Source: an uncultured bacterium (GTDB lineage: Bacteria; Verrucomicrobiota; Lentisphaeria; Victivallales; UBA1829). Taken from it: 51,716 nucleotides of DNA. Made by a program: the position numbers and the translations under genes. The first letter of the stretch is position 1. The number at the start of each line of letters is the position of its first letter. This document shows positions 13,021 through 15,862 of the stretch, piece by piece. The stretch covers positions 1 through 51,716 of the forward strand of contig CASFTV010000033.1 of assembly GCA_949297765.1 (NCBI GenBank). Direction: 5' to 3'. The notes below the pieces were generated by a model that was not told the DNA's origin, made no database searches, and saw nothing but the letters and a program-made list of their open reading frames with translations.

Positions 13021-13064
13021 AACGATCTCTCCATGAAAAGTTTCTATTTCATTTTTTCTGATTT

Positions 13065-13246
13065 TCAGGGTTTGAATCCGGCTTTCAGGATGCGGTTGGC
13101 GGTTCCGTCATAGCCGGGGGTTCCGAGAGCGACACTTTCTCTCTGATGCACGGCATGTCCATCCGCGTAAAGAAATCCCGCGGTTCCGTTGTGCCGGGTG
13201 TAGGCCGGGTGTAGTTGACGGTGTTTTTCGATCCGCTTCCGTTGTA
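13065..13246 (-). other. -1-frame tail of pseudopilin A carrying the H-X9-DG motif
   Basis: In the frame one base behind that of pseudopilin A, the minus strand reads [20 protein letters not shown], followed by [23 protein letters not shown] and a TGA at 13065-13067. The motif [12 protein letters not shown] at 13158-13193 has exactly nine residues between H and DG. All four substitutions relative to pseudopilin B between 13089 and 13104 fall on third positions of this frame and are silent in it. In the frame of the open ORF they change residues. No canonical slippery heptamer was found. Confidence 0.7.
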
Positions 13247-13861
13247 ATCCGAACCGTAAAGCCGGGATGAACTGTTGGAGACCCCTTCACCTATGCTGAC
13301 GGCCTGTGCAGGAGAGGAAACCTGCGTTATTTTCCGTGTCCGTCCCGGTTCATCTCCCACCGTGTTTACCGAACCTCCGTGAAGAAAGATATTGACCTGA
13401 TAGTTCGTAATATTATCCGCCCAGTGCAGCAATTTCGGTTCCGCCGGACAGGAGAACTGGCCGACTCTCCGCTTGGCATGACATCCCCATGCAACGCCAT
13501 ATGGACCGGGTCTTGACCATGCCTCTTCCGTCGACGGCGTATTTTCCGTCAGTCCGCAGAGCATCCCGAACCAGACCCGATGACGGAGATCCAGCGTATA
13601 TTCCGTCGCTTCCCCGTTCCAGTTCGGAACGAGCCAGTCGTCATAATCGCCCGAATACTGCATGCTTGCCATGCCGAGCTGCTTCATATTGTTGATACAG
13701 GAGGTTATTCGTGCCCGGTCGCGGGCCTTGTTCAGCGCCGGCAGCAGGAGACTCGCCAGAATGGCGATCACCGCAATTACCACAAGAAGTTCTACAAGAG
13801 TAAACCTTTCGATCCGATAGAAACCGGATTGCCGGTTTCCCTTTTCATCCCTTTTGTTCAT
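13085..13861 (-). CDS. Pseudopilin A of a tandem pair; C-terminal signature is out of frame
   Basis: As an uninterrupted frame this encodes 258 residues. It has the prepilin motif [25 protein letters not shown] and a body very similar to its neighbour ([29 protein letters not shown]). AAGGAG lies upstream of the ATG. After DYNGSGSK the frame runs into a sequence unlike any pilin ([15 protein letters not shown]) and ends at 13085. The -1 frame of the same DNA encodes the expected H-X9-DG tail and ends at 13065. Either the gene needs a -1 shift, or it carries a one-base lesion. It lies upstream of the 1127-residue glycosidase. Confidence 0.75.
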
Positions 13862-13906
13862 TGTATTTTCATCTCCTTATGATTGAAAAATTCCGTTGAC
13901 ACATTT

Positions 13907-14077
13907 TCAGGGCTGGAATCCGGCTTTCAGAATGCGATTGGCAGTGCCGTCATAGCCGGGGGTTCCGAGAGCGACACTTTCTCTCTGATGCACGGCATGT
14001 CCATCCGCGTAAAGAAATCCCGCGGTTCCGTTGTGCCGGGTGTAGCGGTCTTCTTCGATCCGCTTCCATTGTAATCA
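13907..14077 (-). other. -1-frame tail of pseudopilin B carrying the H-X9-DG motif
   Basis: The -1 frame reads [20 protein letters not shown], then [10 protein letters not shown], and continues to a TGA at 13907-13909. It is open only downstream of an in-frame TGA at 14075-14077. Any switch of frame must therefore occur between that point and the H codon at 14033-14035, about 40 bases. The motif at 14000-14035 is identical to that of pseudopilin A. The -1 reading ends in [16 protein letters not shown] against GFKP in the other copy. Confidence 0.7.
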
Positions 14078-14679
14078 TCTCCAAACGCAAACATTGCTTT
14101 CGGTTTGATTCCTTCCACGATGCTGACGGCCTGTGCAGGAGAAGCCACCTGCGTCATTTTCCGTGTCCGTCCCGGCTGATCTCCCAGATTGTTGACGGAT
14201 CCCCCGTGCAGAAAAACATTGAGATGATAATTCGTGATATTATCCGCCCAGATCAGCAGAAGCGGATCGGCCGGACAGGAGAACTGGCCGATCCTTCGCG
14301 GCGCGTCACATCCCCAGCGGACTCCGTAACGCTTCGGAATGGAACGAGCCGGTCCGGAGTTGATCGGAATACTTGCATCGAATCCGCATAACATTCCGAT
14401 CCAGGTCCGGTAGGTATACTTATTATCATATTCCGTCGCTTCCCCGTTCCAGTTCGGAACAAGCCAGTCGTCATAATCACCCGAATACTGCATGCTGGCC
14501 ATGCCGATCTGCTTCAGATTATTGATACAGGCCGTTGTATGCGCCCGTTCCCGGGCCCTGTTCAAAGCCGGCAGGAGAAGACTTGCCAGAATGGCAATCA
14601 CCGCAATCACCACAAGGAGTTCCACCAGAGTGAACCTCATGATTTCCCCGGGAGACTTTATCCAACCTTTCGTTTTCAT
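13927..14679 (-). CDS. Pseudopilin B of a tandem pair; C-terminal signature is out of frame
   Basis: 250 residues from the ATG at 14679, which has AAGGAG 8 bases upstream. The prepilin cleavage/methylation helix is [20 protein letters not shown]. It is closely similar to pseudopilin A over most of its length ([36 protein letters not shown]), so the two arose by tandem duplication. Like its neighbour, it leaves the expected frame after DYNGSGSK and ends at 13927 without the DG motif in frame. It is the first gene of the operon whose promoter is at 14852-14880. Confidence 0.77.
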
Positions 14680-14721
14680 TTTCCCATCTCCTTGATTTGC
14701 ATCCTCTCCAGACCGCCGGAC

Positions 14722-14807
14722 GGAAAAATGCAGAAGCATTTTTCCGGGTCAAGGGCCGCCGCCCTTGTCGCGGTCCAGCGGCGAAACGCTGGTCGTGCGA
14801 AGCACGA
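14722..14807. other. Four consecutive perfect hairpins in the leader of the pseudopilin/glycosidase operon
   Basis: Four inverted repeats follow each other almost without gaps. GGAAAAATGC pairs with GCATTTTTCC (14722-14745, loop AGAA). CAAGGGC pairs with GCCCTTG (14750-14767, loop CGCC). CCAGCG pairs with CGCTGG (14775-14792, loop GCGAAA). TCGTGC pairs with GCACGA (14793-14807, loop GAA). None is followed by a T-tract like a standard terminator. The element lies between the predicted minus-strand start site (about 14845) and the ATG of pseudopilin B, so it would form part of the 5' untranslated RNA. It could instead be a dispersed palindromic repeat. Confidence 0.7.
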
Positions 14808-14851
14808 AATCCCCGTTCTTCCTTCCCTCCAACGAGACCCCCGCCTGTTTT

Positions 14852-14880
14852 ATTATAGCATATTCCCCGATATTTGTAAA
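14852..14880 (-). promoter_or_regulatory. Sigma-70-type promoter of the pseudopilin/glycosidase operon
   Basis: On the minus strand TTTACA (14875-14880) and a perfect TATAAT (14852-14857) are separated by 17 bases. The expected start near 14845 gives a leader of about 165 bases before pseudopilin B. The surrounding DNA is much more AT-rich than the rest of the window. Confidence 0.6.
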
Positions 14881-15022: not shown

Positions 15023-15862
15023 ATGCTTGAAAACCGTTCCGAAAAATGCAGCAACGATTTTATATGGAATCAGTTTCTTGCGGAACTGGACGTGAAGGTG
15101 ATCAAGAGCGGAGTGGCATACAACATTTTCTCCTGGTCAACCCTTCAGGGATTTTCCGGAGAAGCTTATTACCGTCTCCATCTTCCGATAACCGGGAAAT
15201 TCCGGACCGTATATCCGGGGGGCAGCTGCCTTGTCGAACCGGGAAATCTGTATCTGATGCCCTGCTCTCTTCCTCTGAAACTGGAAGGGATCGAACCCTG
15301 CACTCACGGCTGGATCCATTTTGTATCGAAACAGCTTCAGACGATTCCGATGCTTGGATATCCGCAGTCGGTTCCGCTGGAAAAACCTGAACTTATCCGG
15401 GAGAAATTCTATTCTGTCTACCGGAAAATGAAGGTCTGCGCCTCATTTGCCGACGCGGTCATGCTTAAGAACACGGTCACCGAACTTCTTGTCCCGTTCC
15501 TGGAAAAAATCTCCGATCATCTCCCGGATTCCATACTCCCGGTCTCCGAATTCATGAAGGTGGTCGACTACATTGACCTCCAGCTGAAGCGCAATATCGA
15601 GGTGGCGGAGCTCAGCGGCCTGCTCGGGATGTCCCGCGCGGAGTTTTCCGCTTCGTTCCGGAAGGTGTTCGGCGTTCCTCCGAAACAGTACATCTCCATC
15701 CGGCGGCTCTTCCACGCAAAACAGCTTCTGATGGAAAGTCCGCTTCCGATCAAGGAAATTGCACTCCGCTGCGGATACCGCGATGAATTCTTCTTTCACC
15801 GCATTTTCAAAAAATATACAGGAATCCCTCCCGCAAGATACCGGAAATACACCTGCTATTGA
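15023..15862 (+). CDS. AraC-family transcriptional regulator
   Basis: 279 residues with GGGAGG just upstream of the ATG. An N-terminal cupin-like part (YYRLHLPITGKFRT, EPGNLYLMPCSLPLKLEG) is followed by the paired helix-turn-helix domain: VAELSGLLGMSRAEFSASFRKVFG and IKEIALRCGYRDEFFFHRIFKKYTGIPP. It is divergent from the pseudopilin/1127-residue glycosidase operon and sits 25 bases upstream of a GH20-like gene. It may therefore regulate either or both in response to a sugar. The inducer is unknown. Confidence 0.87.
   Translation: MLENRSEKCSNDFIWNQFLAELDVKVIKSGVAYNIFSWSTLQGFSGEAYYRLHLPITGKFRTVYPGGSCLVEPGNLYLMPCSLPLKLEGIEPCTHGWIHFVSKQLQTIPMLGYPQSVPLEKPELIREKFYSVYRKMKVCASFADAVMLKNTVTELLVPFLEKISDHLPDSILPVSEFMKVVDYIDLQLKRNIEVAELSGLLGMSRAEFSASFRKVFGVPPKQYISIRRLFHAKQLLMESPLPIKEIALRCGYRDEFFFHRIFKKYTGIPPARYRKYTCY

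What the first reader, a model, noticed from the sequence alone, without database searches (positions are those of the whole stretch)
14722..14807. Four back-to-back perfect hairpins in a 5' leader
Stems of 10, 7, 6 and 6 bp follow each other within 86 bases between the predicted start site and the first codon of the operon. This is far more structure than chance and does not look like a terminator. It may be a regulatory RNA, an RNA-stabilising leader, or a member of a dispersed multi-hairpin repeat family. Series of short GC hairpins of this style occur between genes in several phyla as far as I recall, which I could not verify here.
Basis: partly seen in the sequence, partly recalled or inferred. 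Interest (0 to 1): 0.6.

Follow-up and report, generated by a model that had tools for sequence, protein, structure and literature searches.

The report
Dispersed four-hairpin mobile repeat family
The four hairpins are one of about 44 scattered copies of a 90-base, apparently mobile, non-coding DNA element in this bacterium (order Victivallales), which happens to have landed in the leader of one gene; it is not a dedicated leader regulator, and the enzyme that moves it is unknown.

Summary
The unit is window 14721-14810 (+), one of 44 copies ("type A") in this 4.2-Mb genome, mostly between genes and mostly near gene 3' ends. A second type ("C", 7 copies) has the same four-hairpin plan with different stems; the two can lie as inverted neighbours. 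R1, a covariance model of type A, finds relatives almost only in the order Victivallales. Rfam has no match. In 125 distinct copies there are 198 double Watson-Crick changes against 24 G-T and 19 A-C half changes: pairing is kept without preference for the RNA of either strand. At 10 sites tested, the window's included, matching loci of same-genus genomes lack the element. In the window it sits in a predicted 5' leader, between a minus-strand promoter (region conserved in three relatives) and a pseudopilin gene, but it has no general tie to leaders. Best reading: a REP/MITE-like non-autonomous mobile element, probably moved as folded single-stranded DNA by an unidentified enzyme; Y1, IS91, IS110 and reverse-transcriptase genes do not track it. 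Its C-rich, G-poor flanks on the element strand are unexplained.

The parts
14721..14810 (+). complete type-A element (four hairpins plus the GAAA tail)
   Evidence: similarity to the other copies stops abruptly at both ends; covariance model match 14720-14811, 109.5 bits
14721..14746 (+). hairpin P1 (11 bp), variable in sequence but paired in the copies
   Evidence: 8 of its 11 pairs show changes on both sides
14750..14767 (+). hairpin P2 (7 bp)
   Evidence: pair 14755-14762 is G-C in 22 and A-T in 22 of 46 copies
14768..14774 (+). linker TCGCGGT before P3 (GGTC occurs at the foot of P2, P3 and P4)
   Evidence: near invariant in own copies and kept in diverged members as CGnGGTCC
14775..14792 (+). 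hairpin P3 CCAGCG-GCGAAA-CGCTGG
   Evidence: 99.3% of cells paired, two pairs with double changes
14793..14807 (+). hairpin P4 TCGTGC-GAA-GCACGA
   Evidence: 97.8% of cells paired, two pairs with double changes
14808..14810 (+). conserved tail after P4 (end of CGAAA; last conserved bases)
   Evidence: column conservation; kept in diverged members
14852..14880 (-). predicted promoter TTTACA-17-TATAAT of the pseudopilin pair; this copy lies downstream of it (context, not part of the element)
   Evidence: the region is conserved in three relatives whose leader has no element
13927..14679 (-). DUF1559-type pseudopilin gene whose predicted leader holds this copy (context, not part of the element)
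   Evidence: Pfam PF07596; AAGGAG 14693-14688 and ATG 14679 read

Best explanation
The feature is a solo copy of a small (about 90 bp), non-coding, non-autonomous mobile repeat with four hairpins joined by constant GGTC-type linkers. SHOWN: it is dispersed in 44 copies; ten sites occupied in this genome are empty in same-genus relatives; the four stems are kept by double base changes; related types with other stem sequences share the plan; the types can lie as inverted neighbours. INFERRED: copies spread by a trans-acting enzyme that recognises the folded single strand (hairpins plus GGTC linkers), as RAYT or IS200/IS605-like enzymes do with REP hairpins; the enzyme here is not identified. INFERRED: copies are found mostly near gene ends because they do least harm there, with the orientation following the C-rich, G-poor strand. 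In the window a copy inserted into the leader of a pseudopilin operon; it is transcribed there as the reverse complement if the predicted promoter is used, with at most incidental effects on that mRNA.
For: 44 type-A copies in the own genome at 74-110 bits, and C-type copies at 38-45 bits (first seen). Double changes in 14 of 30 pairs, 97.4% of cells paired, 0 of 500 shuffles as high, in all four helices. In 125 distinct copies 198 double Watson-Crick changes against 24 G-T and 19 A-C cells (outer three P1 pairs left out): no RNA-strand preference. Empty sites: for 10 own-genome sites, window included, the loci fetched from G001-G003 hold no element. Same plan with other stems in type C and in g3 type B. 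A and C inverted side by side (own loci L021, L036). Orientation: opposite-strand gene at the P4 side 33 of 42, p 0.0003; tandem contexts 19 against 4, p 0.003. Flanks C-rich and G-poor on the element strand in every gene context.
Against: No mobilising enzyme was found: Y1 (PF01797) is absent from G001 and G002, which hold many copies, and no element lies near the Y1 loci read; IS91-type (PF04986) and IS110-type (PF01548) genes are absent from G000-G003. No target-site duplication and no terminal inverted repeat within one unit were seen by eye. Perfect stems could also be kept by template-switch repair of quasi-palindromes without selection. Flanking intergenic DNA is too diverged to fix an exact junction. 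All genomes are draft assemblies, so a missing gene is weak evidence.
Confidence: 0.72

Rival explanations
1. REP/BIME element proper: REP-like palindromes mobilised by a RAYT (Y1) transposase that is lost or unassembled in these drafts.
For: High-copy intergenic palindromes, inverted neighbours and tandem clusters; a constant tetranucleotide GGTC before three of the hairpins, reminiscent of the GTAG before REP palindromes (PMC2817692). One Y1 gene exists in G000.
Against: Four hairpins in 90 nt instead of one palindrome; no GTAG; Y1 genes do not track the element (none in G001, G002) and are not flanked by it in the loci read.
Confidence: 0.12
2. A functional RNA (regulatory leader or 3' UTR stabiliser) selected at the RNA level and spread by duplication.
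For: Strong predicted fold, covariation, conserved loops and linkers; most copies would be transcribed as the reverse complement behind a gene.
Against: G-T and A-C half changes are about equally rare (24 against 19), so neither RNA strand is favoured; no constant neighbour gene apart from abundant paralogs; sites not conserved within the genus; no Rfam match.
Confidence: 0.1
3. A SINE-like retro-element: the P1-to-P4 RNA is copied into DNA by a reverse transcriptase starting at the P4 end, leaving G-poor simple-repeat tails.
For: The P4-side 60 nt in the own genome are repetitive (0.50 against 0.31 in element-free intergenic DNA) and C-skewed, e.g. (AAAAC)n at L038; tandem repeats of the P4 end in G002.
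Against: In relatives the P4 side is not unusually C-rich; G013 has many copies and no PF00078 reverse transcriptase; the retron-like gene of G000 has no element nearby.
Confidence: 0.05
4. An intrinsic transcription terminator family.
For: Closeness to gene 3' ends; P1 holds an A-run and a T-run.
Against: No terminator-like site is called on the element; the window copy lies between a promoter and its gene; a terminator does not need four conserved hairpins and linkers.
Confidence: 0.03

Closest known systems
REP / BIME / REPIN elements with RAYT transposases (PMC2817692, PMC3116915)
   Same: Intergenic, high copy, palindromic, complementary changes, inverted pairs and tandem clusters, a short constant motif at the foot of the hairpins
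   Different: 90-nt unit with four hairpins; GGTC instead of GTAG; no associated RAYT found
Pneumococcal BOX elements (PMC3049150)
   Same: Modular structured intergenic repeats, about 100 copies, enriched between convergent genes, thought parasitic
   Different: BOX has terminal inverted repeats, target-site duplications and a proposed parent IS; none seen here; other phylum, no sequence relation claimed
MITEs in general
   Same: Short, non-coding, multi-copy, insertion polymorphism
   Different: No terminal inverted repeat in the solo unit, no target duplication seen, no parent transposon found
Stem-loop sequence families of bacterial genomes (PMC2267715)
   Same: Repeated families sharing a predicted secondary structure, mostly intergenic
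   Different: That survey covered 40 genomes; I did not check whether a Lentisphaerota genome was among them

Membership tests
REP/BIME | many intergenic palindromic copies | tested here: met
   44 A and 7 C copies, contexts
REP/BIME | single palindrome preceded by GTAG (or a variant such as GTGG) | tested here: not met
   four hairpins, GGTC before P2, P3, P4
REP/BIME | alternating inverted arrangement in clusters | tested here: met
   A(+) with C(-) and the g3 arrays; not all copies, most own-genome copies are solo
REP/BIME | cognate RAYT gene (Y1) flanked by the repeats | tested here: not met
   Y1 absent in G001 and G002; no element near the Y1 loci read; drafts, so not final
MITE | terminal inverted repeats | tested here: not met
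   solo A has CGGAAAAATGC at one end and GCACGAAA at the other; an inverted A-C pair could act so
MITE | target-site duplication | tested here: inconclusive
   none seen in 44 flanks by eye; intergenic DNA of relatives too diverged to fix junctions
MITE | insertion polymorphism | tested here: met
   0 elements in the 24 loci of relatives that match 10 own sites
5'-leader regulatory RNA | conserved association with the leader of homologous genes | tested here: not met
Rfam RNA families | score above a family's gathering threshold | tested here: not met
BOX | boxA-boxB-boxC modules | not tested
   no BOX sequences were compared

The most novel reading that the evidence does not exclude
An order-wide family of mobile elements in which one fixed four-hairpin fold, rather than the stem sequence, is the recognition unit; it inserts in an orientation set by the strand composition of the target (C-rich, G-poor element strand) and is moved by an enzyme outside the known single-strand transposase families.
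Probability: 0.2. Interest if true: 0.75.

Novelty: new variant of a known kind. Interest (0 to 1): 0.48.

Why it matters
It adds a structured mobile repeat family to a poorly studied order and shows a multi-hairpin plan kept across types whose stem sequences differ, which makes the question 'is the fold itself the substrate?' testable. With no RAYT in sight it also asks what moves it. For annotation, such copies should not be read as leader regulators.

Tried and rejected
Y1/RAYT as mobiliser: no correlation, no adjacency in the loci read. IS91 and IS110: absent from G000-G003. Reverse transcriptase: one retron-like gene in G000, not near an element, and none in G013. A 15-kb transposon bounded by inverted copies in G001/G002: it holds ordinary genes (by eye, e.g. 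an elongation-factor-P-like protein), no transposase noticed. Preferred insertion next to terminator T-runs, suggested by a few copies (L013, L035, L009): only 12 of 44 have a left T-run and 13 an A-run, so dropped. Shared neighbour gene: mainly abundant pseudopilin and AraC paralogs recur. Integron-like arrays in G005/G013: the stretches read are tandem repeats of hairpin modules; no gene cassette was seen there. Literature on repeats in Lentisphaerae/Victivallis: nothing relevant found in the open-access library.

Full report
OBSERVATION. The gene context is a divergent gap: a pair of DUF1559 pseudopilin genes on the minus strand (start ATG 14679 with AAGGAG eight bases before it) and an AraC-type regulator on the plus strand at 15023. 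The best promoter match, TTTACA-17-TATAAT, reads leftwards at 14880-14852, so a transcript starting near 14845 would carry the reverse complement of the hairpins in the leader of the pseudopilin operon.

FAMILY. A search of the own genome with the region found 40 scored copies; R1, a covariance model built from 46 type-A copies, finds 44. Alignment shows sharp ends at 14721 and 14810, an almost invariant stretch 14747-14810 apart from the P2 and P4 loops, the P3 loop base 14785 and the covarying P2 pair, and a P1 stem that varies but stays paired. The named structure has 97.4% of cells paired and 14 of 30 pairs with changes on both sides, against 3.0 in shuffles. Counting on 125 distinct copies of several genomes, with the three outer P1 pairs left out, gives 198 double Watson-Crick changes, 24 G-T, 19 A-C and 23 other mismatches. 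G-T would be tolerated in RNA of the plus strand, A-C in RNA of the minus strand; their near equality gives no sign of selection on one transcript. Cells are not independent events, and that alignment was fitted to the model, so this is an argument about direction, not a test statistic.

RELATED TYPES. A second type, C (GAGCCGCAGGCTCGGTGCAGGTCCGTGACCTGC...), has the same order of four hairpins and the same linkers with other stem sequences; a further type, B, occurs in genus g3. Across the order the constant part is [P2]-nCGnGGTCCAGC-loop-GCTGGTCG-[P4]-CGAAA. In relatives A and C (or B) often lie as inverted neighbours with P1 outermost, and g3 genomes have tandem composites about 407 bp apart. 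In the own genome most A copies are solo; L021 and L036 hold such an A-C pair, and at L041 the pair is arranged the other way round, P1 to P1. Over 288 genomes of the phylum 21 have a match; 20 are in the same order and one is marginal. Records with the core pattern among 84,980 named species genomes are MAGs labelled Victivallales or Lentisphaeria, or an uncultured bacterium without a finer name. Rfam has no match.

MOBILITY. For ten own-genome sites, including the window, matching flanking genes were found in G001-G003 and the regions were fetched; most were also read by eye. R1 finds no element in any of the 24 fetched loci. At some sites only one flank is conserved, so there the absence is next to the conserved gene only. 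At the window locus both flanks and the promoter region are conserved in all three relatives, and the gap is about 105 bases shorter and without the element. So the copies were gained in this lineage, or lost repeatedly in the others; gain is simpler.

PLACEMENT. Of 44 type-A copies 19 lie between tandem genes in opposite orientation to them, 4 in the same orientation (p 0.003), 13 between convergent and 5 between divergent genes; the gene at the P4 side is opposite in 33 of 42 (p 0.0003). The gene finder behind these counts is a simple script of mine. In every gene context the element strand is C-rich and G-poor on the P4 side in this genome, and on the P1 side in most (first 20 nt after P4: C 0.42, G 0.09; decay over about 80 nt), against about equal C and G in element-free intergenic DNA. 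The P4-side 60-mers have a mean C-over-G skew of 0.54 against an absolute skew of 0.17 in controls, and are more repetitive (0.50 against 0.31). The 72 copies from relatives do not show this skew. Whether the skew is a target preference or came with the insertion is open.

MECHANISM. Mobility of a short non-coding unit requires an enzyme in trans. The near-perfect hairpins with constant linkers at their feet, symmetric pair changes and strand-dependent placement fit recognition of a folded single DNA strand, as proposed for REP/RAYT and known for IS200/IS605 systems (PMC2817692, PMC3116915); this step is inference. Y1, IS91 and IS110 genes do not fit as the enzyme, and reverse transcriptases do not either. 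Perfect stems could also arise by template-switch repair of quasi-palindromes, which would weaken the argument for recognition but not for mobility.

KNOWN KINDS. It works like REP/BIME and MITE elements but fails features that define them (single GTAG palindrome and RAYT; terminal inverted repeats). It resembles pneumococcal BOX elements in being modular and structured (PMC3049150). I therefore file it as a new variant of the kind 'small structured interspersed repeat' and not as a member of a named family.

LIMITS. Nearly all genomes used are drafts; the own genome has 92 contigs. The transcript start is predicted. No expression data were available. The absence of a description in the literature rests on an open-access library only.

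Noticed in passing
window 13061-13807 and 13903-14637: Tandem duplication of the DUF1559 pseudopilin gene, 81-96% identical over long stretches; matches at G001-G003 suggest the pair is present there too.
   Followed up: partly
L202 3942-5078 (G000:C2 about 59.4-60.6 kb): Retron-like reverse transcriptase of 378 aa (YADD and VTG motifs by eye); no four-hairpin element in the 9 kb read.
   Followed up: partly
L065, L067, L069, L110, L113 (g3-like genomes): Type A is followed there by a further structured module, GCCCGGAGCGGTTC..GACGAGAAC..GTTCGAGAGCTCCGGGC; no Rfam match in the loci searched.
   Followed up: partly
L076, L081, L118, L121, L129 (genus g1): Type A is often followed by another hairpin module, GCGAGAGGAGAAAACCGCTTTGAAAAGCGGTTCTTCTCCCCTCGC.
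   Followed up: no
L078 3227-3296 and 17931-17991: The P4 end is tandemly repeated as a 21-bp unit TGCGAAGCACGAAATCTTTTT, which suggests slippage at this end.
   Followed up: no
L012, L021, L037, L038 right flanks: G-poor simple repeats directly after the P4 end, such as (AAAAC)n and CATCTTCATC repeats; origin unexplained.
   Followed up: partly
L078 3150-18068 and L158: Two identical type-A copies in inverted orientation enclose the same 15 kb of ordinary genes in G001 and G002, in regions over 99% identical although the two genomes are held as different species; G001 has 8% contamination, so a binning mix-up is possible.
   Followed up: partly
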